This document shows positions 13,701 to 50,331 of a stretch of 64,000 nucleotides of DNA, in pieces. The notes under the pieces were generated by a model. That model was not told the DNA's origin, did not search any database, and was given only the letters and a program-made list of their open reading frames with translations. The number at the start of each line of letters is the position of its first letter. Position 1 is the first letter of the stretch. Source of the stretch: Prostheceraeus crozeri (taxonomy: Eukaryota > Platyhelminthes > Polycladida > Euryleptidae); the NCBI GenBank assembly GCA_907163375.1, contig CAJQUW010007252.1, positions 124,001 to 188,000 of the forward strand, read 5' to 3'. The position numbers and the translations under genes were made by a program.

Positions 13701-13704
13701 CAAA

Positions 13705-25383: not shown

Positions 25384-26172
25384 ATGGATGCCAAGGACTC
25401 TAGTCGAACTGCATTCGAAGCTGCTCGACGCATGTCGAATTCCCAACTTAAGCAGCTAACAAAAGATCAACTTACATCTGCCTTGAGAGATGCCATTAAC
25501 AGTTTTGAAATCATTCAAGCAAATAGCATTAGTGCTTCGATGAAAGGTTCTTCTGTATCGTCAAAAGAGGAGCTAATGAATGTTTTGGACATGAAGCTTA
25601 AGGAATACTTATTTCCGATTCAAAACACCATCTCTTCATTGCTTCAAACTCAGAAGGACCTGAAAGGTGAATGTGATATGCTGAAGACTGAGATGGCATC
25701 AATGCAGCTCGAGAGGTCAAGAATGACGAATGACCTGATGATTGAAATGGAGGAACGTGTCAACAGAAGGCAAAATGTTTTCGGTGTTCAGGAGAGTATG
25801 AATGGCAGCCTTGAAGAGCGAAAGGAAAATGATAAGGACATTATAAACGCCATTCTAGATGAAATTGATGGAGACTCTGATGAGGTTAAGTCAGTCACAA
25901 GAATTGGCAAAATTAATCAATCCAGACCGCGAATCATGCGGGTTACTTTCAACAACTATGAGTCTAAACTGTCTGTCCTTAGGAATGCAAAGAAGCTCCG
26001 TGAATCGATGACTTACCGACATGTATATATCAATAATGACCTCACGAATATGCAACAAAGGGAATTTAAGATTCTGAGGGAAGAATTCAAGGCAAGGAAA
26101 AGTTCTGGAGAGGATGTAGTAATACGTGGGGGACAGGTGATGTTGAAGACAAAAGTCCCAAATTTTCATTAA
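25384..26172 (+). CDS. LINE ORF1 protein (coiled coil and RNA-binding-like)
   Basis: The ATG at 25384 opens 262 codons. Residues ~50-130 are a heptad-rich coiled coil. After NRRQNVFGV the C-terminal half has the fold-like order of LINE ORF1p: VTRIGKINQSRPRIMRVTF, LRNAKKLRES, VYINNDLTNMQQREFKILRE, ending GGQVMLKTKVP. It is intact and presumably a nucleic-acid-binding chaperone for the LINE RNA. It ends at TAA 26170-26172. Confidence 0.8.
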   Translation: MDAKDSSRTAFEAARRMSNSQLKQLTKDQLTSALRDAINSFEIIQANSISASMKGSSVSSKEELMNVLDMKLKEYLFPIQNTISSLLQTQKDLKGECDMLKTEMASMQLERSRMTNDLMIEMEERVNRRQNVFGVQESMNGSLEERKENDKDIINAILDEIDGDSDEVKSVTRIGKINQSRPRIMRVTFNNYESKLSVLRNAKKLRESMTYRHVYINNDLTNMQQREFKILREEFKARKSSGEDVVIRGGQVMLKTKVPNFH

Positions 26173-28792
26173 GTGATTTTACATTCAAACCTCCAGTTCC
26201 TCATGTTATTCTATCGAATGTTCAATCTCTTCGACCAAAACTTGATGACCTTGCAGCTATATCATCCCTACGTGCACCTCATATTATAGCTTTGTGTGAG
26301 ACATGGCTGAGTGAAAATGTGTCTGACGATGAACTTCATCTTCCTAATTATTCAATTTGTCGGAAAGACCGTTATGATGGTCGCCGTGGTGGAGGAGTTT
26401 GCACTTATATTCGGAGTGATGTCCCATATTCTATTGTAGATATTGCAAACCCTCTACAATTTTTCGAATGTCTTTGTTTGCATGTGTTGTCATTTGATAT
26501 TATGCTTTTTGTAATGTATATTCCACCTCAGCTATCTACTTTCCAACTGTCACATATAAATTCGCTTATTGTTAGTTCGTGTGATCGTTTTTCAAATGCA
26601 AATATCATGATTGTTGGTGATCTCAACCATTTTCAGACTGCTGAATTAGAAATATCCCTTGATTTGTCTCAAGTTGTAAACTGTCCTACTCGACAAGAGT
26701 CCATTTTGGATAAAATTCTTCTGAGTAGTTCGTTGTCATCTTTGTATTTCTGTGATGCTAGCAAGTGTCCTGTATCTGTGGAGGCACCTATTGGGAAATC
26801 AGATCATTGTATTGTTTGCATCAGGCCTCCTTTCTGCATGAAGGATTTTTCTGACGGGTCCTATACCGTCACTGTTTTTGATTACAGAGAGAGTAATGTC
26901 ATAGAGTTTAGAGACATTCTTCAAAAATACCCATGGCATCACTATTACAGCTTGAATGAAACAATTGAAGCTAAATGTGCTATATTTAATGACATAATTC
27001 ATAGAGCCATGTCCTGCATTCCTCACAGTACGGTGAAGATGAACGGTAATGAGAAACCATGGCTTACCCCCAAAGTGAAGCACCTGATAAATCTTCGTTT
27101 TCATGCCTATCGTCAAAGAAACTTTCCCCTGTACCATCACTATCGTGTAAAAGTTAAGTCTGAGATAGAAAATGCAAAGCAGGCATGGGTCAGAAATGTA
27201 AAGGAGAGACCTAATGGCATTTGGAATATTGTGAATAAAGTAAGAGCCAAAAACAACGAAACTCGTCCACTCAATAAAGAATTCGCAGAGGCAATCAATA
27301 ATCAATTTGCTTCAAACTTTTGTGAATCCCCTAACTGGTCCCTTTTGGCACAATTACCGGCTAGTGTTAATAAAGATTGGAACATTGAAATCAGTGTCGA
27401 CAAAACAAAGGATATGTTGAGGAACCTAAAGGCTGGGAAATCAACAGGCAGCGATGGTATTCCAACTAGATTGATAAAGGCAGCTCACTCAGAACTTGCA
27501 GGACCATTGACTCATTTAATAGCGATGTCAGTTGACAGCAAGTGTGTCCCGAACAGATGGAAATCTGCCAATGTAACTCCTGTACCGAAATGCAAATCGC
27601 CCTCTATTTGTGATTATCGGCCTATCTCAGTATTGCCCACTTTTTCCAAAGTACTTGAAGATTATGTACTCGGCAGCGTGAAAAAAGAACTCATCACGAG
27701 GTATGGTCCAAATCAATTTGGCTTTCGACCTTTCCACTCAACAACCCATGCCAACAATCGTGTTCACGACTACATTACATCTATTCTCGACGACTCTTGC
27801 TCAAAAGGTGTATTGGTAATAACTCTTGACCTATCTAAGGCATTCGACTGTTTGAGTCATGAGAGCTTGGTCAAGTCCTTAACTGATGCCTCTCTTCCGA
27901 CAAATTTCCTTCTTTGGTGTTTTAGCTATTTGAAAAACAGAGAGCAGAGGGTGCGACTAAAAAATGGATGTACCAGTTCGTTTCTCCCAGTAACATCTGG
28001 AGTCCCCCAAGGTGGAAAATTATCGCCTTTTCTGTTTTGTGTTCATATGAGTTCCCTCCAGCCAAAGTTCCCACATATATTGTATTCAAAATACGCTGAT
28101 GACAGAGCTATTGTTGTGCCTGTCTATTTGGTTTCCGACTTGAGTTGCATTGCTGAATCCGAAATTAATAGAGCTCATGACTGGTGCTCATCTAATGGGC
28201 TTCGTTTGAATAGGCAGAAAACTAAGGTGATGCTGATCAAGAAGCCAAACGTGATGGTATCCCATCCAAATGATGCATTTTTTCAAAAGCAGCTGTCCAT
28301 CCTAGGTGTCATCTACAATGAAAAACTTACTTGGGATGACTTCGTTCAGCATTTGTGCAAGAAAGCTATTCAGAAGCTGTACATCATTAAACGTGTAAAA
28401 AGGTATCTCCATGCTAGTGACTTAATCATACTCTACAACGCTCTCGTTCTGTCGACGTTGGAGTATAATGCACCTCTGATCATCGGGCTGAATCAAAAAA
28501 TTCTGAAAAGTTGGAGAAGGTGCGACGCCGTTCACATCGAGTAATCTGTGGCATGGACTGTGACTGTTCATCCTTCACTCCCCTACATGTTCGACGACGA
28601 AGCAGTGCTCTTAAGTTGTTCCACGGACTATCGAATCAGGAAAACTTGCTTAACGACCTTCTTCCTGACACTCATCCTCGTTCGCAGCGCTTGGTGATTC
28701 CTTTCTCACGAACTCTGTGTCGACAAGCCTCTTTCATACCTAAATGCACTTCATTGTGTAATCAGTTTTGTAAGCCCAGAAGCGCTAGATGA
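26150..28792 (+). pseudogene. LINE ORF2: endonuclease and reverse transcriptase, one frameshift
   Basis: The frame is open from inside the end of ORF1 (about 26150). Endonuclease motifs: ILSNVQSLRPKLDDL, CETWLSE, GVCTYI, VGDLNHF and GKSDHCIV. RT motifs: NLKAGKSTGSDGIPTRL, YRPISVLP, NQFGFRPFHSTTHA, ITLDLSKAFDCLSHE, SGVPQGGKLSPFLF and the catalytic KYADDRAIV. Near 28500-28530 an indel around an A run moves the final ~90 residues (QRR-like KVRRRSHRVICG to 28792) into another frame; otherwise the 750-codon frame is intact, indicating a fairly young insertion. Confidence 0.85.
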
Positions 28793-29568: not shown

Positions 29569-29574
29569 ATTATT
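29569..29574 (+). repeat. left 6-bp target duplication
   Basis: ATTATT, identical to 45775-45780. The AT-rich sequence weakens it slightly as evidence, but it abuts the exact inverted-repeat ends. Confidence 0.8.
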
Positions 29575-30618
29575 AGTAGTAACCCCATCCCAGACGCAAG
29601 GACAGTGCGGTGGGGTGGAGTGGTAGAGTTGAAAAAGTCAGGTTTTGGAGGTTTTGGGATGAGAAAGGCTGGAATTCGGCATGAAGGAGGTTTCGGATTG
29701 GAAATTGGAGTTCAAATTCGGAGTCTACGTGAAATTTTGGGTTAGGAAGGATGTTTCCAGCGACATCGGAGAGAAAAAGTTTTGAAGACCTCCCCCCCCC
29801 TCCTGCCAAACTTCCAACTTCGGTTGTAGAGATCGTAGAAAGTCGTGCAATAGCTCATTTGAAAGCTGAGAATGAGAAAAATGCAGTGCAAAGCTCAGTT
29901 TGGACTAATTTTCTTGACTTGAGGGAGGAAAATGGTAGGAATACGTCACAGTTGGAAAAGTCAAGTGTGAGATGTTTTGGGATGAGAAAGTCCATTTTTC
30001 GGCATGAAGGAGGTCTCGGATGGGAGAATGGAGTGCAGATTCCGACTCTACGTGAAATTTTGGGTCTAGGAACGACTTCCCAACTCCATCGGAGAGAATA
30101 AGTTCTGACCCCCCCCCTGCCAAACTTCCAACTTTGGTTGTAGACATCGTAGAAAGTCGTGCAATAGCTCATTTCAAAGCTAAGAATGAGACAAATTCAG
30201 TGAAAGAAACGGCTTGTTCATATCTGTCTTCGTTTAGATGTGAGACGCCATTTAAGATATTGGAGATTGGCGAAAAACGACAGAGTTAGAATGTTTATGA
30301 AAATCGCTCTAGTGGGTGAAGCAAGCCTCGGACGGGAGATCAGAGACCAGATTTGGAATCAGCGTCAAATTCTGCTTCGGCATGCTAAATTTGAAAGCCA
30401 TCGTAGAGAAAAAATGTTTCATCCTTTTTCCGAAAAACGACCGAGTTACAATTTTTGCGATGGCTGTGGGCTGTAGAGCCAAAACGAAGCATCGGATGGG
30501 AAAATGGAGGGCAGATTCGGATTCAGCGTCAAATTCTACATGACAATGGTGAATTTCCAGCTCCATCGGAGCACTAGAACCGGAGAAAGACGGGTTTTTA
30601 GTGTTTGGATGATGGGTA

Positions 30619-30653
30619 TTACGTCATCAGCTGATCGCCACACACTATATAAG
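30619..30653 (+). promoter_or_regulatory. TATA box and CRE-like site in left arm
   Basis: TTACGTCA (30619-30626) and TATATAAG (30646-30653), spaced as a core promoter, pointing into the element. The same motif is present in inverted form in the right arm. Confidence 0.5.
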
Positions 30654-32744
30654 TGGAAACTCGGCTTGTGGAAATCAGTTCTCCTCCCGACTGGGTTGGG
30701 GTAGGTGAACTCTGGAGCTCCGATGATAGCATTGGAAATCTGAAAAGCCGGGTTTCTGTAAGAAACCGACTTAAAATTTCATTGCTGAAGTCAGCTAAGG
30801 CGTCAGACTTAGAGGTTCGCCAGGAGATGGCCTTCGTCTCCAGGCCATAAAAGACTCCAAAACTTTAAAGGCTTGTAACTTTGCTTCTACAAGTCCGTTT
30901 GACTTGATTCAAAAAAGGTTCGGTCGCTATTGACCTGCCCTAAGTGATTTCATAAGTAGTACTAAAAAGTTGAAAAATTTAAATTCACTAGTTTTGGAGG
31001 TTTTCTGGGGTTTTCGACCCTACTGAAGTCAACTAGAGGATTTTTAATGATGTCTGAGCCAGTCTTTTCATGTTACAAGCAGCTTTTCACTGAAAGCGAG
31101 CAAGACACGGAGAGTTTTGCTGTAATATTCCACTGACAGGGTGTTCCTTCGGGACGGCGGACGATGCCGTAGTGATAAGTGTGGCAAGGGAGTGTGTCAT
31201 AGTTTAGACCGAAACCGCTGGGGCAACTCATGTCTCATGTTGGGCATTTGACACAGTTCTCAACGTAGCACTTTGAACGCCAATCGGTTGAGTCTTAGCT
31301 ATCTTGTCATGGGTGGCCTCTAAACATCTCCATTGCAAAACGCTGGTGAATCAAGCTCTCTACGGCTTGCTATCAAGCTGATCAAAGTCTGTCAACCTCA
31401 TACCAACTCCACCGGTTTTCATGTCTGGCGATCAAGTCATGGACGGTGCAAGTCACGGAGATTTTCGGTCTGATACTTCCTGTGTGTGAGCGTTCTTTCG
31501 AGACAGCGGTGAAGTCCGTAGCGATGAGTACTGCACGGGACGTGGGCAATGGTAATCCTTGTGAAACCTCTCTGCGTCATGTTTGCAAGTGGTTGCCTTT
31601 CGTCTCAACGTTGTACTCTGACCGCCAGGGCGACATTTATCTATCTGCCACAGGTTGCCTCATAAAATCTCCATTGCACTTGTCTCCCGACAGTTGGCCA
31701 ACCATGGGAGAATGAACCATCAGTTCTTTTTGTCTCTATCACGGAGACGAAATGATGAAGGGATGAAACGGGAGGACATTCATGCGCCACACGCAACACA
31801 TCACAGACTTCTCTCTTCGCTAGTGAACAAGCTCTTGTCAGTGTCGTCAGAAACTTCATCATGTTGTACAAAAGTTTTCTTGCAACACAGGTTGATGTAT
31901 AGTTAGAAAGTTTGATCATCAACGTTTTATTCGTAAGTCTAGTCAGAAACTCTATCATGGTTTGTAAAAGCAAAGTTAGTGTAGTCAAATAATATTACCG
32001 CGACACCCGTTGAGAAAATAAAGTTTGATCATGACGTTTATTCGTGATTGTCGTCAGAAAGTGTATCATGTTTGTAAAAATTTTACTGCTACACAGGATG
32101 ATGTATAGTTAGAAAGTTTGATCATGACGTTTATTCGTTAGTGTCGTCAGAAACTTTATCATGTTGTACAAAGGTTTTACTGCAGCACAGGTTGATGTAT
32201 GGTTAGAAAAGTTTGATCATGACGTTTTATGAAGCACAAATGTCATAAAATGTAAGCGCTAGTGTAGTCAAATAATTTTACTACGACACACGTTTGTAAA
32301 AGTAAAGTTTGATCATCGACGTTTACGAAACACAAGTGTCATGAAATGCAAGCGTTAGTGTAGTCCAGTAATTTTACTACGACGCACGTTTGTGAAAGTA
32401 AAGTTTGATCACTGAAGTTGTATTCGTAAGTCTAGTCAGAAACTTTATCATGTTGTACAAAGGTTTTACTGCAACACAGGTTGATGTATAGTTAGAAAAG
32501 TCTGATCATTGAAGTTGTATTCGTAAGTCTAGTCAGAAAGTGTATCATGGTTTGCAAAGTTAGTGTAGTCAACTAGTTCTTTACCGCGACGCATTGTTTG
32601 TGAAAGTAAAGTTTGATCATTGACGTTGTATGACTGACCGAACTCATCACATCATTAGAAAGTTTTATCGAAAAGGTTTTACTGCACAGTGTAGATTGTC
32701 TTGTAACTTACTTTCACGGTGGTAGAAAGTTTTATTGGAGACAG

Positions 32745-32942
32745 TTGCCAAATGTTTCCTTATTAGAGAATTCAAACTTCATGACTGTTAGATTAGCTTC
32801 ATCAGGTTTACTAAAAGCAGTTTTCTACTGCAGTGAGACTGAGAGTTTGGAATGTTATATGAAAACAGTGTTCACCACAGCGCTAGAAAGTTTTACTGCG
32901 CTGTGTAGATTGTTTCACACAAGGTCTTATAGTCAGCGTTGA
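32745..32942 (+). CDS. small frame in left arm, duplicated at 42063-42260
   Basis: 65 codons, identical in translation to the inverted-arm copy. No domain recognised. Identity of the arms alone could explain its conservation, so coding status is unproven. Confidence 0.2.
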   Translation: MPNVSLLENSNFMTVRLASSGLLKAVFYCSETESLECYMKTVFTTALESFTALCRLFHTRSYSQR

Positions 32943-33084
32943 ATGTTTTGTAAAACCAGATGTTGTCACAAACATTGAGTGTGTGAGAGCTAGTTCCATG
33001 ACATTAAATCGCGTGGGTCGTAAAAGTCCATGATCCAAGGCTAGGCTCCTCTACGGTTGGATTTAGGGTTTTATATCACATGCG

Positions 33085-33351
33085 TTAACTGTTTGTGTAG
33101 AATACGTGAAGCACATGTTCGCTTAAATGCAAATGTTGAAATAAGTTTTGTAAGAAGTCTTTGACAGGTTGTTGTGAAACGTAGCGAACGTTGAAAAAAG
33201 TTTTATAAAATGTTTCTACAGTCGCACTCGTTAGCGTGCCAGCTTTACTAAATGTGTTGTTTGCCTTTATCAAATTGAATGCGTGTGTTTTGTAAATAAA
33301 GACAGCGTGTTTGCACTCTGCATCGACAGCATACAAGTATACACATAACAA
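33085..33351 (-). CDS. 88-codon frame in left arm
   Basis: Starts MLCVYLYAVDAECKHAVFIY and contains two Phe/His-rich stretches. The inverted-arm copy (41654-41920) differs by only two residues near VKDFLQ/VKEFLR. Read outward on the left arm. No known domain; could be a real small gene of the element or chance. Confidence 0.25.
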   Translation of the reverse strand: MLCVYLYAVDAECKHAVFIYKTHAFNLIKANNTFSKAGTLTSATVETFYKTFFNVRYVSQQPVKDFLQNLFQHLHLSEHVLHVFYTNS

Positions 33352-34464
33352 CCTGTAACGTTGTTAGTCGAATGCATATGAGATAGGAAACACTCAAAGC
33401 ATGTGTGAGATAAAAATCAACCTGCTAGATGAAGTGAAACACAAAAGTGTCACAACTAGTTTACGGGAAATAAAAGAGAACTGTGACAACGTTTACACCC
33501 ATCATAGACAGATGAACATATAGTCTAACTTTCTGACATTCAAATGAAAGTCGTAAACATGAACTGTGGTGTAAGAAACTTTATGACAACAACTTTATGT
33601 TGGTAAAACTTTCATAGATTGCAGGCGTGTTAAAGCTGATATAAAGACCTGTAGAAACGCATAAGGCTTAGTTCAACGACTCGACCCTTGAACTCACACA
33701 ATGAATACGTCTGTGTAGAAAACTCATCAGTAGGAAACAGCAAAGCATGTCATTGAATGATCAAGTCTGTGGAATTATTTCATGAGTATGAAACAGCGAA
33801 CATTAGGACTGACCATGAGCAAGAAAGGTTAGAATCAAAGTTTTCTTTTCATGTACATGACAAATGAAACCGTGTCTCATTTCTAAACGAAACGTGCATT
33901 GATCATAGAATCATCATTGAAACGTGATTTTCTGTGTGAATGCAGACGATGTAAACATGACATTTAACATGTCTTGCAATAGTCAACACGCTGCCATTCA
34001 AAATGTTTATCATAAAACCTATCAGTGAAAAAACCCCTCCTGTGCCCACAAAGAATCATAAGTGCACTCTGACGCCTGTTTGTCTCGCTAGCCCCTCAGC
34101 AGATAGAGTAGAACACAAAGATGAATGACAGCGCAGCCGGTGGGCAATCGTCTGTCGCGCTAGCCCCTCAGCAGATAGAGTAGAACACAAAGATGTACGC
34201 GCTCTCTCTGGCGCCCGTCTGTCACATGAAACAGAGATCTATCGCATCTGTCCCACGAGCAAGGATGCAGGACCGTATCGCCATCTGCGACCTCCCACCT
34301 AGCTGATTCCCACACAGCTCATTGCTATCGCACCGGAAGGGAGATTCACGCGATAAATGCATCTAAGTTTGTTGAGTGGTTGAGGATGGCAGTCAATGAA
34401 AATATGACTTCCCTTTTCGTCCACCAACTATAAGCTTAGAGCGATTTGATTGCGCGAACCAGAC

Positions 34465-34474
34465 ATTTAAAAGG
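34465..34474 (+). promoter_or_regulatory. TATA-like box upstream of the acidic ORF
   Basis: ATTTAAAAGG lies 52 bases before the ATG at 34526, with a TCATTCTCAG-type initiator about 20-30 bases downstream. Confidence 0.5.
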
Positions 34475-34525
34475 CTGTATCATTCTCAGATAAAGCAGAG
34501 TGTCTTACAGTTTACTATCATAATC

Positions 34526-35014
34526 ATGTCCGAGAAGCCGACTGCTCAAGTTACCCCATATAGGATTACTTACATGGGCGAAACTTTTCTCTCCGATGAG
34601 AGTGAGGATATAGTATTTCAGTTTATGAAATACTATTCCTTGTTCGATGAATCGAACGTCATACCTCCACCCGAATCCCCGATGATGGATCTGCAGGAAT
34701 CTCCGAGTGAGAGCGAGACGGTGGGGAGTGAGGCCGAGGCGGTCACGAGCGAGGCCGAGACGGTGGAAAGAGAGGAGATGATGTGGAGTGAGGACTCGGA
34801 AAGTGATAACATAGAAAGTGAGGAAGTGGAAGCGAGTGAAGATGTCATTGTGATATCGGATGATGAAGTAAGAGTTTTACACATGCATACGAATGACTAT
34901 CATCTCAACTCATTCATGTTTTCTTTCAATGATGGAGTGAGTGATGGGCGTTCTTTAGTTCATAAAATCATCATGCGCACATACAGCACACTGTTTCACC
35001 ACATTTCCTCGTGA
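34526..35014 (+). CDS. acidic protein with a SUMO-interaction-like motif
   Basis: 162 codons starting just inside the left arm. Residues ~45-115 are strongly acidic with Glu/Ser repeats (SETVGSEAEAV-like). At ~110-118 it reads EDVIVISDDE, a textbook hydrophobic-core-plus-acid SUMO-interacting motif. The N-terminus (ITYMGETFLSDESEDIVFQF) and C-terminus (MRTYSTLFHHISS) are less acidic. No enzymatic domain is visible. Together with the coiled-coil ORF it is the coding capacity of the central region, and may act in host-nucleus interaction or regulation. This is inference from composition only. Confidence 0.6.
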   Translation: MSEKPTAQVTPYRITYMGETFLSDESEDIVFQFMKYYSLFDESNVIPPPESPMMDLQESPSESETVGSEAEAVTSEAETVEREEMMWSEDSESDNIESEEVEASEDVIVISDDEVRVLHMHTNDYHLNSFMFSFNDGVSDGRSLVHKIIMRTYSTLFHHISS

Positions 35015-35282
35015 ATGCATCATGAGTTCTTATAAGAACTTCCTTCTAATGCAGCTAAAGCGGTCCCAAGCCCGCCACATATCTTCGGATATGGAATGCA
35101 GAGGGGAAGGATATATGATGAATGGAATGAAATGGGAGGACACTCTTGCACCACATGCAGCCACAAACACATTTCTATCTTCATTAAGATGACATTCAAT
35201 CACTTGAATTCTAATGTGACCTAATCCTTAGATCTCAGTACAGTCAACTCTAACGTGCTTGTTAAACCTAGTATCTCTAGCT

Positions 35283-35945
35283 TTACAAACACTGAAAGGA
35301 TTCTAACATGATTTCAAACTTTACAAACATCAACTTTATTTCTAACGTTACAAACAGTGAAATGCTTGTGACACTATTTTATACTTTACCTATCTTGCAA
35401 ACACTGAAATGATTCTGATATTATTCCTAACTTTACAAACAGTGACATGGTCTTGACTTTATTTTATATTTCGCCTATCTTACAAACATTGAAAGGATTC
35501 TAACATGATTTCAAACTTTACAAACATTAACTTTATTTGTAACTTTGCAAACAGTGAAGTGGATCTGACTTCATTTATATTTCACCTATCTTACAAACAG
35601 CGACATGGTTCTAACTTTATTCCTAACTTTACAAACGTCAACTATATTTCTAGCTTTACAAACAGTGAAGTGAATATGACTTCATTTATATTTCACCTAT
35701 CTTACAAGCAGCGACATGGTGATAACTTTATTTCTAACTTTACAAACAGTGAAGTGAATCTGACTTCATTTATATTTCACCTAACCTACAAACAGCAACA
35801 TGGTGATAACTTTATTTCTAACTTTACAATCATCAACTTTATTTCTAACTTTACAAGCAGTAAAATGGTTGTAACTTTATTACTAAGTCAATCCACTCTA
35901 TTGAAACGACAAGAAAACGACACAGTATGTACATGACATGTTATT
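35283..35945 (+). repeat. central tandem/direct repeat field, copy 1
   Basis: Degenerate units of AACTTTACAAACAGTGAA and TTTATATTTCACCTATCTTA alternate every ~85-110 bp. Part stays open as a 143-codon repeat frame (35505-35936) with TSFIFHLSYKQRHG recurring. The field ends with CGACACAGTATGTACATGA, as does copy 2. Confidence 0.7.
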
Positions 35946-37242
35946 GAAACCCACACAGCTTTTTTGTTTTATATCCTACCAACTCATTTCATGTGTTCTA
36001 TCCTATACACTCAAAACCTGCAACGACATTCTATTACACCTGAAATCTATTGACATGTGATACATTACATTAAATCTTCGATATCAAATACTATCATGAA
36101 ACAACTAGCAGTACCTGACTCTAAACATGCACTGATTCCCACATTTATGACATTAGTAATTTTTCTATCATGTGTGACTACATGCTCATCAATATGAAAG
36201 GCTTGCAGTGACTTAACTGTTAATGTGTCATGTCAAGCTTTTGGAAATAACTTTTTATGTACAGTTGACATACAATCAATTTCAACGGATGCTCCAGTCA
36301 TAGCATGTTCGCACTCATGGTGTCATGCTGCATCAACAAGTTGCTTCTATCTAACTTTTCAATAAATAAACCAAACGCCCTGATGCTATATGATTATGTC
36401 TCGATATGCTATTGTTGTTTCTTTTAACTATGTCACTGATTCAAACAGTTAATTACATTACCTATTCATTAAACTTTGCAATCTCAATCTTTGCTTTCAT
36501 CGAATATGAACCTCTAATTTACATACAATAACTATGATATGTGTTCTATCTTATACAATCAACCAGTAGAGACATTCATTCTGTTGCATCCATGAACATG
36601 ATGTGATAAAATTCACATCATCTCAAGACCCTTTAACAGCGCTTGTCTCCAAACATATGCTGAATCCCATACAGCTTGTTTGTTACACTACCAATTCATT
36701 TCAATGTCAGCTAATCTTGTATCACTCATTTCATGTAACACAACTTTTCACTTTAATTATTCCCAGAATGTTACTGCAGTGGTCTCAACGCAATCCCTAT
36801 CATGTATTCTAACACTCTAATCACTGTGCAATGACTGTTGTGAATTGTATCGCATTCATGTACATGACCCAGGCTTGTAAATTCCTGTTACTCAGGTGTG
36901 AGAAGGTTATGAGAACCTAAGATGCTTCAGCGGTTCATTTCAATTTACACGAGTAACATTTGATGCTTTCATGTCTAGTAACATGCATGAGTTACTTCAT
37001 CACTCTAGTTTAATGGAGACTTTGATTATTCATTCTTAGCTCGCTGAAGATGAGTGTTTTAAAATCATCACACCGTGAAGAGAGATTGCAAACTAATGAA
37101 GATAGAAATTTGATATCTGTATACGTTTGGCGTGTGAGTGGCCATCCTTTCATCCCTTTCATCAATTTTCAACCCATCCTCTGAGTTCAACGGGCTTGGA
37201 ACCGTCAGAAAGTGAAAACACTTTCTGGCCTCATGGGTAGCC

Positions 37243-38463
37243 TCATAAAGGCTGTTTGGGACATTCACTAGCCTCATGAAGGCTGTTTGTGGCGTTCTCC
37301 GACTCCTCTCTACTTTTGCTCGGAGATCTCTGTAAGAAAGAAAAAATGGTGTTAGAGTTGATTGAGAGGCAATGACGTTCGAGTAACTTACTAGGAATTT
37401 TCCTCTTCACTTTTCTCACTGAAAAATCACACAGTCGACCGTCTACCTCCATACTGATATGAATGCAGGTAACCCCACCTCCCTCGTAGCACTCCTGCGT
37501 GGTGTTTAAATCATCTGTAACAGTAGGCACGTCACATACTTGGTTTCTGTAGATTGGCAGGTGTACCTCTACGTGTCTTCTCTTCATTTCCTTGTTGATG
37601 TCTTCAGCCTGACTAAGTCTCCTCTTCAGCTCATGATTTTCTTCTCTCATCCCTTGACAGTTCCTCTCTATCACACCAAGTCTGGTAACCTCCTGCCTCT
37701 GATGATTCAACTCGGATACTACCTCCTCATAAGCCATCTGCTTCTTCCATTCCCGCCTCTCTTTCATTAATGTTTCCTCTCTCTTCTGCAGCTGTAATAC
37801 TGCCTCCTGTAAGACTTTCACCGTTCCCACTTTAATTTCTAGTTTGGCTATGTCCTGCACCATCTCTTTATTTTGTCTATTCACGGCCTCATAGCGATCT
37901 TTGAGCAGCATGTAATGGGCTTGCTGTGATGTGTTCGCCTTCAACTCATCTCTATCTAGAGCTCTTGTTTGTTCGCGTATACCACCTTTCTTTGGCGTAG
38001 AAGTGTTAAGTGGCTCCTCTACATGTTCAGATGCGCGCTCAGATACATGTTCAGATTCCTGTTTACCACTCATGAAAACAGCTCTCACCTCCTGTACTTC
38101 CCCTTCCTCCTCACTTCTGCTTGTATCGCTGAGGTAATGATCGCTCCCATCATCATCCAAGTCGACAATGTGTCTTACAGCCGCCCTCTCCTCCTGCCTT
38201 CGTCTATACAAGTCATCAAACCACTTTTTGAAGTGGCAGTTAGAAATAGACGCACTAGGACACTGGTCATGTCTTTTCCTAAATTCAACAAAGTCAGAGT
38301 CTGCTTCCACAGCATGATGAACACAGGTCTTTATTTCAAAGACCTTCTTATGCTCCCCAATGTGTTCCACCTGTCTCCAGTGCTTTTTGTATTCGGTCCC
38401 TCTGTATACTTTATTGCATGAACATCTTGTGACGCTGTAGCGTGAAGACTTTGATAAAACCAT
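37243..38463 (-). CDS. Cys/His-motif and coiled-coil protein of the 16.2-kb element
   Basis: Up to 406 codons from ATG 38463. An acceptor-like TTTTATCTTGCAG sits 8 bases before the ATG, suggesting a 5' UTR intron. The N-terminus has RCSCNKVYRGTEYKKHWRQV then EH (Cys-X-Cys...His-X5-His), a possible zinc-binding knuckle, followed by more Cys/His (CVHHA, RHDQCP, NCHFKKWF). Residues ~95-115 are acidic; ~190-310 form a long coiled coil. Near 37390 a GTAAGT donor and near 37330 a TTTTTTCTTTCTTACAG acceptor define a likely 63-bp intron; splicing would end the protein at ISEQK. No known family; a DNA-binding dimeric protein is one possibility. Confidence 0.6.
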   Translation of the reverse strand: MVLSKSSRYSVTRCSCNKVYRGTEYKKHWRQVEHIGEHKKVFEIKTCVHHAVEADSDFVEFRKRHDQCPSASISNCHFKKWFDDLYRRRQEERAAVRHIVDLDDDGSDHYLSDTSRSEEEGEVQEVRAVFMSGKQESEHVSERASEHVEEPLNTSTPKKGGIREQTRALDRDELKANTSQQAHYMLLKDRYEAVNRQNKEMVQDIAKLEIKVGTVKVLQEAVLQLQKREETLMKERREWKKQMAYEEVVSELNHQRQEVTRLGVIERNCQGMREENHELKRRLSQAEDINKEMKRRHVEVHLPIYRNQVCDVPTVTDDLNTTQECYEGGGVTCIHISMEVDGRLCDFSVRKVKRKIPSKLLERHCLSINSNTIFSFLQRSPSKSREESENATNSLHEASECPKQPL

Positions 38464-39339
38464 GTTGAAACTGCAAGATAAAAGTTAGTTATTTACTACA
38501 GTTCTCACAAGAAAGCACTGTTTATCAGAAACATGTTTGTAATAAATGGCATAGGACAGACAATGATGACCCTAACCTTAAGACCCTAGTGTTAGAAAGT
38601 GTATCAGTGATGCCTGTAAGATCTGACTTTAAATCTCTAACTTAGAACGTTTGGTAGCAAACGTCAGACGACTCACCGTTGAAAGGGGGAAACAGGAGTG
38701 ACATTGGGTAGGGAGAAGCGCCTTACATACTTCTCTCTCACAAAGACAGAATATACCAATGTCCAAATTTGGTCATGGCTCTTTCAAACAATTTCATCTC
38801 GCCATATTTGGAATCTCAGCCGCTGATTTTCCTGACTGACGCAGGGAGTCAAGATTGCCATAAATGGACATTCTCGCTTCGTTGTGACGGAAGGGGAATG
38901 AAGCTCGGCTCACGCTTTGTGACAGCGATCTCTTTATCCTGAGTGGCAAGTTTGTATGACCCTCAAGTGAACTGAATGTATACGAAGATGAAAAGATTGA
39001 ATAGTTCCTAGCGTGTGATAAAATACATGGAATGACCAACGTACAGATGCTCACAATGATACTTAGGGGCTTCACACCATTTGAATGTTTTCTTATATCA
39101 TGCTCACTTTCGAAAAGGCTTGATTCAATGGTTCATTTGAAGGATGCTTGTAAAGTTCAATACTGCATTCCCATGACATTTCAATTTTATGTGTTTATAC
39201 AAGTGTATAAGCTTTCACTGGACTCGCATCGTCTTATAAAGTGTTCGTTTACCAGCGCATGAAGTTATATCTCTCAATGACGTTGATTTCAATCTCTCTC
39301 ACACCACACATTGTCACTTTAACCATGACTGGAATACAG
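38464..39339. other. central spacer upstream of the coiled-coil gene
   Basis: Contains its likely minus-strand promoter/5' UTR, but I see no clear TATA box. The short frames at 38794-39262 have no motif. Confidence 0.4.
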
Positions 39340-39870
39340 TCTCACACATGAACTTTATTTCTAACGTTACAAATGCTGAAAGGATTCTAACATTATTTTA
39401 TATGTCCCCTATCTTACAAATATTGAAAGGATTCTAGCATGATTTCAAACTTTACAAACATCAACTTCATTTCTAACGTTACAAACAGTGAAATGCTTGT
39501 GACACTATTTTATACTTTACCTATCTTACTAACACTGAAATGATTCTGACAAAATTCCTAACTTACAAACAGTGACATGTCCACGACTTTATTTTATGTT
39601 TCGCCTATCTTGCAAACACTGAAAGGATTCTGATATTATTCCTAGCGTTACAAACAGTAAAATGGTTGTAACTTTATTACTAAGTCAATCCACTCTTTTT
39701 GAAGCCCAACTTTATGTGAAAAGAAAACGACACAGTATGTACATGATATGTTATTGAAACCGACACAGCTTTTTGTTGCACTAACAATTCAGTTCAATGT
39801 GAGCTAGTCTTGTATCACTCATTTTATGCGACATAACTTTTCACTTTACTTATTCCTGCAATGTTACTAC
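39340..39870 (+). repeat. central direct repeat field, copy 2
   Basis: Same orientation as copy 1: the run from AAAGGATTCTAGCATGATTT through AACAGTGAAATGCTTGTGAC corresponds to 35292-35370, and the CGACACAGTATGTACATGA end is repeated. It also matches 36650-36790 (CAGCTTGTTTGTTACACTA region). The two fields flank the coiled-coil gene. Confidence 0.7.
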
Positions 39871-40668
39871 TATGTGTTCTAAACTTTATGAGTTCGCTTT
39901 CACTTCTATCTCACACTTTCTTCATCATCTAACCAAGTGAATGACATTGATGATACATTATCTGACTATACGCATTGAGTCACATTCTACACCAACAGAT
40001 ATTACTAACATCGATCATATAAAACGCCAAGTCTTGTCATAGGCTTGACTATGCTATGGTCTTAGTGATTTATCTATGTAACTTACACTTTTAAAACGCT
40101 AAATCCTTAAATCTCAACACAGGGACACCTATCCTATGGGTTTAGGAGTTTTGCTGTATAATTTAGTAAACTTATGTCTCACTCAGCATACGACTTTTAA
40201 AATACAACACTGACTGATGAATGATGTTCATATACTCCTAGCTTGCATAACAAGAAACTTTCCTGCGTTGACTATTATATATTTTCCTCATCAACTCTTT
40301 ACACACTTATGATTCCAATCACTAAGTTACATACAACGCTTCTATTGATCATGCATCAATCACCTTTCAGCTGACCACATCAAATGTAAAGTGTATAACA
40401 AATATCCACAGCGGAGCTCAAGGGTTCGGCTCATGTCAAAGAAAGCGATATCGAACGACATTGCTTCAAACGACTTGTATTTGATGAATGAGTGTGAACG
40501 TCTCCCTTATATTTCTCACACATTTTTGTAACTGGCTAGCAAGACATTGCAGAATTGAAGAAATCGGCAGTGTCCATGCTTTAACAGCAAATGGTGACGC
40601 GTGCGCGCGGAGTGTACAGTAACGAATTGTCAACGTGAGAATCCTTTCAGTCGCCCACGATAATCTCT
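39871..40668. other. central spacer before the right arm
   Basis: AT-rich with no recognisable ORF. It ends with a GC-rich stretch near 40600-40680 at the arm boundary. Confidence 0.5.
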
Positions 40669-41653
40669 CCGGCGCGATAGCAATGAGCTGTGTGGGAATC
40701 AGCTAGGTGGGAGGTCGCAGATGGCGATACGGTCCTGCATCCTTGCTCGTGGGACAGATGCGATAGATCTCTGTTTCATGTGACAGACGGGCGCCAGAGA
40801 GAGCGCGTACATCTTTGTGTTCTACTCTATCTGCTGAGGGGCTAGCGCGACAGACGATTGCCCACCGGCTGCGCTGTCATTCATCTTTGTGTTCTACTCT
40901 ATCTGCTGAGGGGCTAGCGAGACAAACAGGCGTCAGAGTGCACTTATGATTCTTTGTGGGCACAGGAGGGGTTTTTTCACTGATAGGTTTTATGATAAAC
41001 ATTTTGAATGGCAGCGTGTTGACTATTGCAAGCCATGTTAAATGTCATGTTTACATCGTCTGCATTCACACAGAAAATCACGTTTCAATGATGATTCTAT
41101 GATCAATGCACGTTTCGTTTAGAAATGAGACACGGTTTCATTTGTCATGTACATGAAAAGAAAACTTTGATTCTAACCTTTCTTGCTCATGGTCAGTCCT
41201 AATGTTCGCTGTTTCATACTCATGAAATAATTCCACAGACTTGATCATTCAATGACATGCTTTGCTGTTTCCTACTGATGAGTTTTCTACACAGACGTAT
41301 TCATTGTGTGAGTTCAAGGGTCGAGTCGTTGAACTAAGCCTTATGCGTTTCTACAGGTCTTTATATCAGCTTTAACACGCCTGCAATCTATGAAAGTTTT
41401 ACCAACATAAAGTTGTTGTCATAAAGTTTCTTACACCACAGTTCATGTTTACGACTTTCATTTGAATGTCAGAAAGTTAGACTATATGTTCATCTGTCTA
41501 TGATAAGTGTAAACGTTGTCACAGTTCTCTTTTATTTCCCGTAAACTAGTTGTGACACTTTTGTGTTTCACTTCATCTAGCAGGTTGATTTTTATCTCGC
41601 ACATGCTTTGAGTGTTTCCTATCTCATATGCATTCGACTAACAACGTTACAGG

Positions 41654-41920
41654 TTGTTATGTGTATACTTGTATGCTGTCGATGCAGAGTGCAAACACGC
41701 TGTCTTTATTTACAAAACACACGCATTCAATTTGATAAAGGCAAACAACACATTTAGTAAAGCTGGCACGCTAACGAGTGCGACTGTAGAAACATTTTAT
41801 AAAACTTTTTTCAACGTTCGCTACGTTTCACAACAACCTGTCAAAGAATTCTTACGAAACTTATTTCAACATTTGCATTTAAGCGAACATGTGCTTCACG
41901 TATTCTACACGAACAGTTAA
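41654..41920 (+). CDS. 88-codon frame in right arm, copy of 33085-33351
   Basis: Same frame as in the left arm with two substitutions. Read outward. Function unknown. Confidence 0.25.
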   Translation: MLCVYLYAVDAECKHAVFIYKTHAFNLIKANNTFSKAGTLTSATVETFYKTFFNVRYVSQQPVKEFLRNLFQHLHLSEHVLHVFYTNS

Positions 41921-42062
41921 CGCATGTGATATAAAACCCTAAATCCAACCGTAGAGGAGCCTAGCCTTGGATCATGGACTTTTACGACCCACGCGATTTA
42001 ATGTCATGGAACTAGCTCTCACACACTCAATGTTTGTGACAACATCTGGTTTTATAAAACAT

Positions 42063-42260
42063 TCAACGCTGACTATAAGACCTTGTGTGAAACAATCTAC
42101 ACAGCGCAGTAAAACTTTCTAGCGCTGTGGTGAACACTGTTTTCATATAACATTCCAAACTCTCAGTCTCACTGCAGTAGAAAACTGCTTTTAGTAAACC
42201 TGATGAAGCTAATCTAACAGTCATGAAGTTTGAATTCTCTAATAAGGAAACATTTGGCAA
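42063..42260 (-). CDS. small frame in right arm, copy of 32745-32942
   Basis: Same 65-residue translation as the left-arm copy. Coding status unproven. Confidence 0.2.
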   Translation of the reverse strand: MPNVSLLENSNFMTVRLASSGLLKAVFYCSETESLECYMKTVFTTALESFTALCRLFHTRSYSQR

Positions 42261-44058
42261 CTGTCTCCAATAAAACTTTCTACCACCGTGAAAGTAAGTT
42301 ACAAGACAATCTACACTGTGCAGTAAAACCTTTTCGATAAAACTTTCTAATGATGTGATGAGTTCGGTCAGTCATACCACGTCAATGATCAAACTTTATT
42401 TTCACAAACGTGCGTCGCGGTAAATTATTTGACTACACTAACGCTTACATTTCATGACACTTGTGTTTCATAAAACGTCATGATCGAACTTTTCTAACTA
42501 TACATCAACCTGTGCTGGAGTAAAACCTTCTAAAACTTTCTAGTGCTGTGATGAGTTCGGTCAGTCATACAACGTCAATGATCAAACTTTATTTTCACAA
42601 ACGTGCGTCGCGGTAAATTATTTGACTACACTAACTTTGCAAACCATGATACACTTTCTAACGACACTCACGAATACAACTTCGATTATCAGACTTTACT
42701 TTCTCAAACGGGTGTCACAGTAAAATTATTTGACTACACTAACTTTCTAAACGATGATACACTTTCTGACTAGACTTGCGAATGAAACGTTGATGATCAA
42801 ACTTTCTAACTATACATCAACCTGTGCTGCAGTAAAACCTTTGTACAACATGATAAAGTTTCTGACGACACTGACAAGAGCTTGTTCACTAGCGAAGAGA
42901 GAAGTCTGTGATGTGTTGCGTGTGGCGCATGAATGTCCTCCCGTTTCATCCCTTCATCATTTCGTCTCCGTGATAGAGACAAAAAGAACTGATGGTTCAT
43001 TCTCCCATGGTTGGCCAACTGTCGGGAGACAAGTGCAATGGAGATTTTATGAGGCAACCTGTGGCGGATAGATAAATGTCGCCCTGGCGGTCAGAGTACA
43101 ACGTTGAGACGAAAGGCAACCACTTGCAAACATGACGCAGAGAGGTTTCACAAGGATTACCATTGCCCACGTCCCGTGCAGTACTCATCGCTACGGACTT
43201 CACCGCTGTCTCGAAAGAACGCTCACACACAGGAAGTATCAGACTGAAAATCTCCGTGACTTGCACCGTCCATGACTTGATCGCCAGACATGAAAACCGG
43301 TGGAGTTGGTATGAGGTTGACAGACTTTGATCAGCTTGATAGCAAGCCGTAGAGAGCTTGATTCACCAGCGTTTTGCAATGGAGATGTTTAGAGGCCACC
43401 CATGACAAGATAGCTAAGACTCAACCGATTGGCGTTCAAAGTGCTACGTTGAGAACTGTGTCAAATGCCCAACATGAGACATGAGTTGCCCCAGCGGTTT
43501 CGGTCTAAACTATGACACACTCCCTTGCCACACTTATCACTACGGCATCGTCCGCCGTCCCGAAGGAACACCCTGTCAGTGGAATATTACAGCAAAACTC
43601 TCCGTGTCTTGCTCGCTTTCAGTGAAAAGCTGCTTGTAACATGAAAAGACTGGCTCAGACATCATTAAAAATCCTCTAGTTGACTTCAGTAGGGTCGAAA
43701 ACCCCAGAAAACCTCCAAAACTAGTGAATTTAAATTTTTCAACTTTTTAGTACTACTTATGAAATCACTTAGGGCAGGTCAATAGCGACCGAACCTTTTT
43801 TGAATCAAGTCAAACGGACTTGTAGAAGCAAAGTTACAAGCCTTTAAAGTTTTGGAGTCTTTTATGGCCTGGAGACGAAGGCCATCTCCTGGCGAACCTC
43901 TAAGTCTGACGCCTTAGCTGACTTCAGCAATGAAATTTTAAGTCGGTTTCTTACAGAAACCCGGCTTTTCAGATTTCCAATGCTATCATCGGAGCTCCAG
44001 AGTTCACCTACCCCAACCCAGTCGGGAGGAGAACTGATTTCCACAAGCCGAGTTTCCA

Positions 44059-44093
44059 CTTATATAGTGTGTGGCGATCAGCTGATGACGTAA
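44059..44093 (-). promoter_or_regulatory. TATA box and CRE-like site in right arm
   Basis: Mirror image of 30619-30653: TGACGTAA (44086-44093 as written on plus) and CTTATATA (44059-44066), pointing inward on the minus strand. Confidence 0.5.
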
Positions 44094-45774
44094 TACCCAT
44101 CATCCAAACACTAAAAACCCGTCTATCTCCGGTTCTAGTGCTCCGATGGAGCTGGAAATTCACCATTGTCATGTAGAATTTGACGCTGAATCCGAATCTG
44201 CCCTCCATTTTCCCATCCGATGCTTCGTTTTGGCTCTACAGCCCACAGCCATCGCAAAAATTGTAACTCGGTCGTTTTTCGGAAAAAGGATGAAACATTT
44301 TTTCTCTACGATGGCTTTCAAATTTAGCATGCCGAAGCAGAATTTGACGCTGATTCCAAATCTGGTCTCTGATCTCCCGTCCGAGGCTTGCTTCACCCAC
44401 TAGAGCGATTTTCATAAACATTCTAACTCTGTCGTTTTTCGCCAATCTCCAATATCTTAAATGGCGTCTCACATCTAAACGAAGACAGATATGAATTTGT
44501 CTCATTCGTAGCTTTCAAATGATCTATTGCACGACTTTCTACGATGTCTACAACCAAAGTTGGAAGTTTGGCAGGAGGGGGGGGGGGTCAGAATTTTTTC
44601 TCTCCGATGGAGTTGGGAAGTCGTTCCTAGACCCAAAAGTGGCCAAAACGTCCGAATCTGCACTCCATTTTCCCATCCGGGCACTCCTTCCTACCGAAAA
44701 ATGGACTTTCTCATCCCAAAACATCCAACACCTGACTTTTCCAACTCTGACGTTTTCCAACCGTTTTCCTCCCTCAAGCCAAGAAAAGTGTACCAAACTG
44801 AGCTTTCCACTGCATTTTTCTCACTTTTAGCTTTCAAATAAGCTATTGCACGACTTTCTACGATCTGTAACACCAAAGTTGGAAGTTTGCAGGAGGGGGG
44901 GGGTCAGAACTTTTTCTCTCCGAATGAGTTGGGAAGTCGTTCCTAGACCCAAAAGTGGCCAAAACGTCGGAATCTGCACTCCATTTTCCCATCCGAGCAC
45001 TCCTTCTGCCCGAAAAATGGACTTTCTCATCCCAAAACATTCAAAACCTGACTTTTCCAACTCTGACGTTTTCCTACCATTTTCCTCCCTCGAGCCAAGA
45101 AAATTAGTCCAAACTGAGCTTTGCACTGCATTTTTCTCATTCTCAGCTTTCAAATGAGCTATTGCACGACTTTCTACGATCTCTACAACCAAAGGTGGAA
45201 GTTTGGCAGGAGGGGGAGGTCTTCAAAACTTTTTCTCTCCGATGTCGCTGGAAACATCCTTCCTAACCCAAAATTTCACGTAGACTCCGAATCTGGACTC
45301 CATTTTCCCATCCGAGGTCTCCTTCTGCCCGAAAAATGGACTTTCTCATCCCAAAACCTGCCTTTTTCCAACTCTGACGTTTTCAAAGATTCCACCCCTT
45401 GCCTCACAAGAAAACTCCTCCTTCCATCCTTCCCAACCCAAAATTTCACGTAGATTCCGAATCTGAACTCCAATTTCCAATCCGAGACCTCCTTCATGCC
45501 GAATTCCAGCCTTTCTCATCCCAAAACCTCCAAAACCTGACTTTTTTAACTCTACCACTCCACCCCTTCTCCCTTCCGAGATTCCACTCCTACCTGGAAA
45601 ACTCCTGCCTTCCTTCCAGAGGGGGGGTAGGGAACAGTTTTCTCCTCACGGACCCATTCCTCCATCACATCCTTGGCCCTCTTCCTCACCTTCCTTCCAG
45701 AGGGGGGGGCTGAGTCAGCATGATGACTCATCACTGCACCGCACTGTCCTTGCGTCTGGGATGGGGTTACTACT

Positions 45775-45780
45775 ATTATT
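45775..45780 (+). repeat. right 6-bp target duplication
   Basis: ATTATT, identical to 29569-29574. Confidence 0.8.
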
Positions 45781-48960: not shown

Positions 48961-50331
48961 TTAAAGCTGACGACACCCTTCGCATTGTAAGATCAGGTCA
49001 GTGATGCCCTTTATCCTGAGACATCTGCTTTGAACTCTTTGTAGGCGTCTTGAGTCTTCAGTGGATAAGCCAACGAAGGCGGGAGATGCATACTCAAGTA
49101 AAGTTCTGATGAGGGATTCATATATTAATCTGAAGTCCTTCATTGTTGTACATGACTTCATTCGCAGTAGTATATACATTCGTTGAGCACATAGTCTTTC
49201 AATGTAGGTGACATGAGCACCCCATCCAAAATTCCCATCCATAATGACACCAAGAAAACGGACATTCTGCTTGAAAGTTATATCAGCAAGCTCGCTTTCG
49301 AGATCGACTACTTCCTGAAAATCTCCTCGATATCTGATCAGTCCCGTAGTTTTATGTTTCAGTTGCATATCATTTCTAAATGACCAATTGCGTATGACAG
49401 TAATTTCAGATTTTATTCTCTCAATATCATAACGGACGAAGGACTTTCTAATGCCAAATGTTATTGCAAGGTCATCAACAAACTTCACCATAATAGTGTC
49501 CAAATTAGACGGTTGCAGAGATGAGACGTAGAGACTAAACAGATAAGGACCCAGCAGTGATCCCTGGGGGACACCACTTGTCACCTCACTCAATGCACTC
49601 TTGCGACCATCTAAGGGAACTCGTTGTTGGCGATCACTGAGATATTGCTTCAGCCAAATAACAAACCCTGCTGGAAAGTTCATCTGAAGGACCTTTTGAA
49701 CCAGATCGTGGTGACTTATTTTATCAAAAGCCTTTGAAAAGTCAAAGCTGAGAAATAGTGATGCACCAATTTCAGGATCGTCAGCAAAACGGGTCAACGA
49801 GTCATGCACGGCAATGATGGCATGAGTAGTTGAAGATTTCCTCCTGATCCCAAATTGATTATTGCAAAGAAAAGACGTAAATAACGGTTTCAACTCATCG
49901 AGAATAAACTTCTCAGCAACTTTTGCCGGCACCGGTAGAAGGCTTATTGGACGAAGATCATTAACCTTATGACTTGACGACTTAGGAACAGGAACAATGT
50001 CCGCAGTTTTCCATAGTCTTGGAAACCTTCGCAATCGCAGACTCTCAGTAATAAGGTGATGAATGGGTTCAGCAAGAACTACAGAACACTTTTTGTAAAT
50101 AGCTGTTGGTACATCATCACTACCTGTTGCCTTGAGAGCAAGTTGGGACAAAGCTTGCCATACATGCTCAACACCAAAAGTAGGTAGCCAGCAGTCATCA
50201 CAAATGTCGATAAATGCATGAGATGTAGTTGGGGAGTTCATCGACGCACAGAATTGTTTATTCAACCCCGTGAGAAAGTCGTTGTAGGATTGGCCATTGG
50301 TGCTTACAGTCGTTTTAGACCCATGCTCCAT
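48961..50331 (-). pseudogene. LINE reverse transcriptase
   Basis: 456 codons with the full RT palm: LKATGSDDVPTAIY, LRPISLLPVPAKVAEK, NQFGIRRKSSTTHA, LFLSFDFSKAFDKISHHDL, SGVPQGSLLGPYLFSLYVSS and KFVDDLAIT (FVDD catalytic box), then the QRMYILLRMKSC and RRLQRVQSRCLRI C-terminal motifs. The RT core is uninterrupted; decay is upstream, where the link to the endonuclease (50331-50465) is out of frame, and at the C-terminus near 48961. Confidence 0.85.

What the first reader, a model, noticed from the sequence alone, without database searches (positions are those of the whole stretch)
29575..45774. 16.2-kb element with giant inverted arms, AG...CT ends and 6-bp duplication but no Polinton genes
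The sequence shows exact 20-base inverted termini, a flanking ATTATT duplication, and arms of about 4.8 and 5.1 kb that are near identical over long stretches. Polintons/Mavericks have 5'-AG ends, 6-bp duplications and this size, but carry polymerase B, integrase, ATPase, protease and capsid genes, none of which I see. The inverted arms make up about 60% of the element. This could be a parasite of Polinton machinery or a new family with its own proteins.
Basis: partly seen in the sequence, partly recalled or inferred. Interest (0 to 1): 0.88.

Follow-up and report, generated by a model that had tools for sequence, protein, structure and literature searches.

The report
Polinton split into separate segments
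This 16-kb element belongs to a large family of virus-like Polinton elements whose replication genes and capsid-plus-integration genes lie on separately inserted elements with the same ends, apparently a transposon/virus that has split its genome into segments.

Summary
In detail: element 29575-45774 has 38-bp exact inverted ends (AG...CT), a 6-bp duplication and 4.8/5.1-kb arms. In its 2.05-Gb genome the end recurs 1,022 times (control 0), often in inverted pairs 15-25 kb apart. Other copies with these ends carry Polinton genes, but split. Type A: polymerase and TBP. Type B: chromodomain integrase, protease, capsid protein, probable ATPase. Type C (this window): none of these, only two ORFs of unknown kind. 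Of 24 end-delimited copies 12 are A, 6 B, 3 C, 3 untyped; none shows A and B genes together, ten of them read nearly throughout. In capped lists (96-150 best copies per gene) same-type genes co-locate at narrow spacings; cross-type genes do not, save one case of two neighbouring elements and one unexplained. Ends of different types can be 98% identical. Best reading: a multipartite Polinton with polymerase and integrase acting in trans; the window is a third segment or a satellite whose arms arose by copying one end onto the other. No paper listing seen describes a segmented Polinton. Interdependence is inferred, not shown.

The parts
29569..29574 (.). left copy of the 6-bp target duplication ATTATT
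45775..45780 (.). right copy of the 6-bp target duplication ATTATT
29575..29612 (+). 38-bp exact terminal inverted repeat, left (5'-AG)
   Evidence: first 27 bases recur genome-wide
45737..45774 (-). 38-bp exact terminal inverted repeat, right (CT-3')
29575..34337 (+). left giant arm; beyond about 0.8 kb its sequence is found at one side only (the side upstream of the polymerase) in four type-A copies
40668..45774 (-). right giant arm
44495..45357 (.). 316-bp tandem repeats (2.7 copies) in the right arm; related units in the left arm at about 29625-30206
34526..35014 (+). SIM ORF, 162 aa, acidic, with a VIVISDDE stretch that resembles a SUMO-interacting motif (recalled, no call); type-C marker
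   Evidence: dN/dS 0.23 and 0.30 against the two C1482 copies (each with one stop)
37243..38463 (-). CSC ORF, 406 aa: Cys/His-rich N-terminus, coiled-coil-like middle, conserved C-terminal block; second type-C marker
37068..37406 (-). reading frame that continues the CSC protein in its close homologue P0001; in the window it lies in another frame, so this copy is frame-shifted there
35283..35881 (.). 85-111-bp direct repeats of the centre, related to those at 39343-39678
39343..39678 (.). second block of the central direct repeats

Best explanation
The window element is the third kind of element (type C) of a multipartite Polinton/Maverick. In this genome the Polinton gene set is divided over separately inserted linear elements, mostly 15-19 kb, that share the same termini and 6-bp duplications. 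Type A carries the family-B (protein-primed type) polymerase, a TBP-like protein and several ORFs without a known domain. Type B carries the integrase with chromodomain, Ulp1-type protease, a double-jelly-roll-type capsid protein, a probable packaging ATPase and a RING protein. Type C carries only SIM and CSC ORFs, or SIM in both arms of a palindrome. Inferred mechanism: A's polymerase copies all types from the shared ends, B's integrase inserts all of them (AG...CT, 6-bp duplication), and B's capsid proteins may package them. The giant arms arise when one end is copied onto the other during replication of a linear genome with inverted ends. Shown: split among the copies read and listed, shared ends, duplications, arm asymmetry. 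Inferred: mutual dependence, packaging, and whether C is needed or a satellite.
For: Partition in copies read in pieces: tblastn of 24 ORFs against 10 copies gives the A set in 6, the B set in 2, neither in 2, both in 0. Of 24 end pairs in the listing, 12 are A, 6 B, 3 C, 3 untyped; no A+B seen (14 of the 24 were not read through). Genome-wide, best-listed copies: integrase(114)-capsid(96) 52 pairs, all at 1.5-1.7 kb; TBP(150)-polymerase(104) 52 TBPs with a partner within 15 kb; SIM(149)-CSC(102) 21 SIMs with CSC within 6 kb (positive controls). Integrase-polymerase, integrase-CSC, capsid-polymerase, capsid-CSC, polymerase-CSC, TBP-capsid, TBP-CSC, SIM-integrase, SIM-capsid and SIM-TBP: 0 within 15 kb. 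Termini cut across types: C7901(A)-C738(B) 97-98% identical, C2034(A)-window right end(C) 98%, while some A-A pairs are 85-87%. Genes are kept: no stop inside the match in 84 of 114 integrases, 86 of 104 polymerases and 131 of 149 SIMs (counted by eye); dN/dS mostly 0.2-0.6, SIM 0.23 and 0.30. Arm sequence lies at one side only in four A copies and at both sides in the window and C7901. Relatives look unsplit: polymerase and capsid homologues share six longest-contig lengths (21290, 20849, 19868, 19492, 15855, 14465), so splitting is probably derived (inference; contig names not given).
Against: No expression, virion or episomal evidence. Searches list only the best 96-150 copies per gene, so rare complete copies could be missed. 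Exceptions: C2610 has SIM 3.6 kb from a polymerase; C3196 has integrase 13.9 kb from TBP, where the stretch between shows two element ends 190 bp apart. Not all genes respect the split: the CC protein lies in A, B and C elements, and ORF p249 of type A has weak relatives (32-33%) in the two B copies. CSC is less well kept: no stop in only 47 of 102 listed places (by eye). Some dN/dS values are not clearly below 1: p547 2.39, one p211 comparison 1.46, CC 0.86, one TBP 0.81, one p265 0.76; PRO had no synonymous change. Nearest terminal neighbour is of the same type in 15 of 30 ends against 10.9 when shuffled (fraction reaching it 0.195), so some type structure is not excluded. The ATPase rests on a P-loop-like stretch and weak AAA hits (best E 0.0046); the capsid call on 3 of 25 relatives with a DJR hit (best E 5e-4), none for the nearest member.
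Confidence: 0.62

Rival explanations
1. A, B and C are three independent non-autonomous derivatives that each live on complete Polintons of another family in the same genome; they do not form one genome.
For: At least 88 other PolB places, many open over about 1,200 codons, lie in the genome. Joint loss of capsid, protease and ATPase genes from some Polintons is known (PMC4028283, passages).
Against: A and B together make a full set, each keeps a coherent module with mostly purifying dN/dS and the same ends; a simple deletion derivative would not be expected to keep a whole unneeded module (inference).
Confidence: 0.2
2. A and B are a true two-part Polinton, and type C, including the window, is a satellite or defective-interfering palindrome that contributes nothing.
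For: C has no enzyme; C1482 is a near-complete palindrome with arms of at least 7.8 kb; inverted SIM pairs on 32 contigs, 31 of them under 10 kb apart; CSC has no stop in only 47 of 102 listed places.
Against: SIM has no stop in 131 of 149 listed places and dN/dS 0.23 and 0.30; SIM is absent from the A and B copies read. A distant CSC relative (CC) is present in some of them.
Confidence: 0.35
3. The three kinds are old, dead fragments of one Polinton spread by segmental duplication.
For: Some copies have stops (30 of 114 integrases), and a few tandem spacings exist (C3151, C472, C1830).
Against: 6-bp duplications at different sites, mostly open frames, near-identical left and right ends in most copies.
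Confidence: 0.03
4. The inverted arms or the split are assembly artefacts.
For: None found.
Against: 1,022 ends, 24 delimited copies on 24 contigs, narrow within-type gene spacings. Reads were not available.
Confidence: 0.01

Closest known systems
Polinton/Maverick (polintovirus)
   Same: AG...CT ends and 6-bp duplications (rule recalled), long inverted repeats, 15-20 kb; rve integrase, capsid, protease, probable ATPase and PolB within the family
   Different: Described ones carry these on one element (PMC4028283, passages); here the polymerase and the integrase/capsid modules are on different elements, and the window copy has neither
Adintoviruses
   Same: rve integrase with C-terminal chromodomain; PolB and capsid genes (definition from PMC11071296, passages)
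   Different: A described example is a single 14.5-kb contig with PolB, integrase, capsid, protease and FtsK genes (PMC8363768, passages). Whether a TBP is known in such elements was not settled: one search listed 3 papers with both words, none opened
Bidnaviruses, including the multi-segment Vesanto virus
   Same: Segmented genome with a Polinton-related PolB (PMC4061559, listing; PMC8363768 and PMC11071296, passages)
   Different: Single-stranded DNA, parvovirus-like capsid and NS1; integrase not mentioned in the passages seen. Works alike, not a member
Foldback / long-TIR transposons
   Same: Giant inverted arms with internal tandem repeats (recalled)
   Different: Here the arms are an enlarged Polinton-type terminus; related copies have arms of only about 1.1 kb

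Membership tests
Polinton/Maverick | 5'-AG ... CT-3' ends and 6-bp target duplication (the rule is recalled) | tested here: met
   exact 6-bp duplication in 6 of 10 pairs, 1-2 mismatches in 4
Polinton/Maverick | size 15-20 kb, long terminal inverted repeats | tested here: met
   window 16.2 kb; 24 pairs of 15.4-25.4 kb, three over 20 kb; inverted arms from about 1.1 kb to at least 7.8 kb
Polinton/Maverick | protein-primed-type PolB in the element | tested here: not met
   absent in the window copy; present in type A: nearest homologues 62% identical, a 58% homologue has PF03175 at E 9.5e-18. The A protein itself gave no PF03175 hit at E<=0.05
Polinton/Maverick | rve integrase | tested here: not met
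   absent in the window copy; present in type B (PF00665 E 2.5e-11 plus Chromo E 1.6e-7)
Polinton/Maverick | double-jelly-roll capsid, Ulp1-type protease, FtsK-type ATPase | tested here: not met
   absent in the window copy; in type B: protease PF02902 E 5.9e-5, capsid by 3 of 25 relatives with PF21738, ATPase weak
Adintovirus | PolB, capsid and chromodomain integrase in one genome | tested here: not met
   all three present in the family but not seen together on one element (lists capped)
Bidnaviridae | segmented genome with PolB on one segment | tested here: inconclusive
   separate elements seen in integrated form only; no free segments observed
Bidnaviridae | single-stranded DNA genome, parvovirus-like capsid and NS1 | not tested
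   no parvovirus search was made; Pfam scans of the 20 ORFs examined showed none

The most novel reading that the evidence does not exclude
The first segmented (multipartite) Polinton: an integrating double-stranded DNA virus-like element whose polymerase module (A), capsid-plus-integrase module (B) and a third module (C, this window) replicate and insert as separate linear segments with common ends, hundreds of copies in all, with ends exchanged between segments.
Probability: 0.55. Interest if true: 0.92.

Novelty: new variant of a known kind. Interest (0 to 1): 0.85.

Why it matters
Segmented genomes are common in RNA viruses and rare in double-stranded DNA viruses (recalled); the segmented dsDNA cases in the listings seen are polydnaviruses of wasps, whose particles do not replicate (PMC1919376, PMC2646287, starts of abstracts in listings). 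A Polinton whose modules are split over co-inherited elements would be a DNA transposon/virus with a divided genome and would offer a model for how segmented bidnaviruses, whose PolB is Polinton-related, came about. It also offers an explanation for large 'gene-less' elements with giant inverted arms: segments or satellites. The genome keeps many copies, so order of splitting, exchange of ends and satellite emergence can be studied directly.

Tried and rejected
Pfam on the window's three central ORFs gave only hits below the curated cut-offs; six-frame Pfam scan of the element gave nothing; protein search of CSC gave one hit (P0001, 90% identity); PDB search of CSC only weak hits (best E 0.037). 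Viral-contig scans with integrase, polymerase, capsid protein and a capsid alignment found no relatives. PDB searches: polymerase none, integrase matched retroviral integrases and chromodomains, capsid profile none. NCBIfam named the integrase only as IS481/IS3-like below cut-off. Considered and rejected: a deletion derivative with an autonomous parent of the same family (no such parent seen); assembly palindrome; composite A+B element at C3196 (the stretch between shows two ends 190 bp apart). Structure prediction of the capsid protein could not be run. The host species could not be named.
Full report
What is there. The element at 29575-45774 (16,200 bp) starts AGTAGTAACCCC and ends GGGGTTACTACT, has a 38-bp exact inverted terminus and is flanked by ATTATT on both sides. 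Arms of 4.76 and 5.11 kb face each other; two blocks of about 1.75 kb are 99% complementary, the rest is blurred by tandem repeats such as a 316-bp unit. The centre holds two ORFs, SIM (34526-35014 +) and CSC (37243-38463 -), and direct repeats. No Pfam domain appears in six frames of 29575-40994.

A large family. The window lies on contig C6034 of a 2.05-Gb genome. The first 27 bases, up to 3 mismatches, occur 514 + 508 times; the reversed control pattern 0 times. Among the roughly 100 places listed there are 24 inverted end pairs, 15.4-25.4 kb apart (23 listed, plus C943). In 10 pairs read at the ends the 6-bp duplication is exact in 6 and differs by 1, 1, 1 and 2 bases in 4.

Polinton genes, split. 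Nine further copies were read in pieces. ORFs from them fall into two sets. Set A: a polymerase ORF (Endonuclease VII-like stretch E 1.5e-4; 802 homologues of its residues 560-1140, the nearest 62% identical; a 58% homologue matches DNA_pol_B_2 at E 9.5e-18), a TBP-like protein (E 8.7e-19) and several ORFs without a confident domain. Set B: integrase (rve E 2.5e-11, Chromo E 1.6e-7), protease (Peptidase_C48 E 5.9e-5), capsid protein (229 homologues; 3 of 25 relatives match DJR-like_dom), an ATPase candidate with a P-loop-like stretch and only weak AAA hits, a RING protein (E 6.3e-8) and others. Of 10 copies including the window, 6 have A, 2 have B, 2 (window, C1482) have neither, none has both. 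Not every gene keeps to one type: the CC protein occurs in A and B, and A's p249 has weak relatives in B (32-33%). With further typing the 24 pairs are 12 A, 6 B, 3 C and 3 untyped. The 11 typed outside rest on one listed marker gene or, for the five, on two 351-base stretches each, so no full gene list was read for them.

Genome-wide test. For each marker the tool lists only the best copies. Same-type genes co-locate: integrase-capsid 52 pairs, all at 1.5-1.7 kb; TBP-polymerase, 52 of 150 TBPs with a partner within 15 kb, nearly all at 2.9-4.5 kb; SIM-CSC, 21 SIMs with CSC within 6 kb. Cross-type pairs within 15 kb: 0 for ten combinations; 1 for TBP-integrase (C3196, where the sequence between shows two element ends 190 bp apart); 1 for SIM-polymerase (C2610, unexplained, perhaps a recombinant). 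The coiled-coil relative of CSC, called CC here, is near A markers in 26, near B in 23, near C in 6 and near no listed marker in 82 of 137 listed places.

Shared and exchanged ends. Over the first 420 bases, left and right ends of one copy are 97-100% identical in 7 of 9 copies with both ends (C5383 92%, window 86%). C7901 (A) and C738 (B) are 97-98% identical; C2034 (A), C943 (C) and the window's right end (C) 97-98%; yet A copies can differ from each other by 13-15% and, for C1260, by about 30%. So terminal lineages run across types, although same-type nearest neighbours (15 of 30) are somewhat more than the shuffled mean of 10.9 (fraction reaching it 0.195). This is what recombination or concerted evolution between co-replicating segments would give (inference).

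Genes are kept, C less evenly. No stop lies inside the match in 84 of 114 listed integrases, 86 of 104 polymerases, 131 of 149 SIMs, but only 47 of 102 CSCs (by eye). dN/dS between copies is 0.19-0.48 for the polymerase N part (5 comparisons), 0.35-0.56 for the C part (6, one with 3 stops), 0.50 for integrase (1), and mostly below 0.6 elsewhere; exceptions are p547 2.39, one p211 comparison 1.46, one TBP 0.81 and one p265 0.76, and PRO without a synonymous change. SIM gives 0.23 and 0.30, CC 0.86, 0.29 and 0.43. B values rest on two copies.

The giant arms. Copies differ in arm length: about 1.1 kb in C2388, about 3.9 kb in C7901, at least 7.8 kb of 15.4 kb in C1482. Sequence of the window's arm beyond about 0.8 kb lies at one side only, the side upstream of the polymerase, in the type-A copies C2034, C1409, C1473 and C1260, and at both sides in the window and in C7901; C2388 shows part of it, also on that side. 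So one arm looks copied from the other end. SIM occurs in inverted pairs on 32 contigs, all facing inward, 31 of them under 10 kb apart. Linear genomes with inverted ends that replicate by strand displacement can make such molecules (recalled for adenovirus-like replicons; inference here).

Is the split derived? Polymerase and capsid homologues in the protein database share six longest-contig lengths (21290, 20849, 19868, 19492, 15855, 14465). The simplest reading is that in those relatives both genes sit on one contig, as in described Polintons and adintoviruses; contig names were not given, so this is an inference. One capsid homologue, P0123, is 97% identical to the type-B protein and comes from public sequence sets (longest contig 8,141 bases).

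Most likely working. One polymerase and one integrase serve all types in trans through the common ends. C may be a needed third segment or a satellite. The rival that other Polintons in the genome help them stays open: 88 other PolB places exist, none within 40 kb of a listed polymerase-A, TBP, capsid, CSC or CC gene; two lie 21 and 34 kb from an integrase and one 14-20 kb from SIM genes.

Prior work. Searches for Polinton with segmented genome, Maverick/Polinton with multipartite, Polinton with bipartite, with TATA-binding protein and others, adintovirus with segment, and segmented double-stranded DNA virus listed no title or abstract start that describes a segmented Polinton; most listed papers were not opened. 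Passages of PMC11071308, PMC6431247, PMC4028283, PMC11071296 and PMC8363768 were seen; those passages describe Polintons or adintoviruses with the genes together, joint loss of capsid genes from some Polintons, and bidnaviruses with up to twelve segments. Subscription journals and most preprints were not searchable.

Noticed in passing
G000 C2610, about 859731-864479: The only listed place where a type-C gene (SIM) lies close (3.6 kb) to a type-A polymerase: possible recombinant between segments.
   Followed up: no
G000, the last 27 listed places, such as C39:6239-7093 and C1291:22092-22946: CC-protein variants (84-86% identical, many with 418-codon frames and the same score) near no listed A, B or C marker: possibly a further segment type.
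   Followed up: partly
L060 (G000 C3196:256300-257500): Two element ends 190 bp apart with divergent termini (AGTAGTAATCCCATTCC..., AGTAGTAAGCACATTGC...): older or sister subfamilies.
   Followed up: partly
G000, 88 places: Other PolB genes (PF03175), many open over about 1,200 codons: further Polinton-like families in the same genome.
   Followed up: partly
G000 C720 and C2166: CSC copies that match all 406 residues of the window's frame-shifted version at 95%, while many other copies have 473-codon frames: perhaps a sub-lineage that spread with the altered end.
   Followed up: no
window 7677-14922 (-), 25321-28544 (+), 48961-52033 (-), 58116-59920 (+), 62107-63963 (+): Gypsy-like ORFs, two LINE-like regions and two piggyBac-like transposase regions around the element, named from the look of the ORFs only.
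   Followed up: no
G000 C3151, C472, C1830: Same-strand copies of one gene 20.0, 21.0 and 15.3 kb apart: tandem elements or duplications.
   Followed up: no
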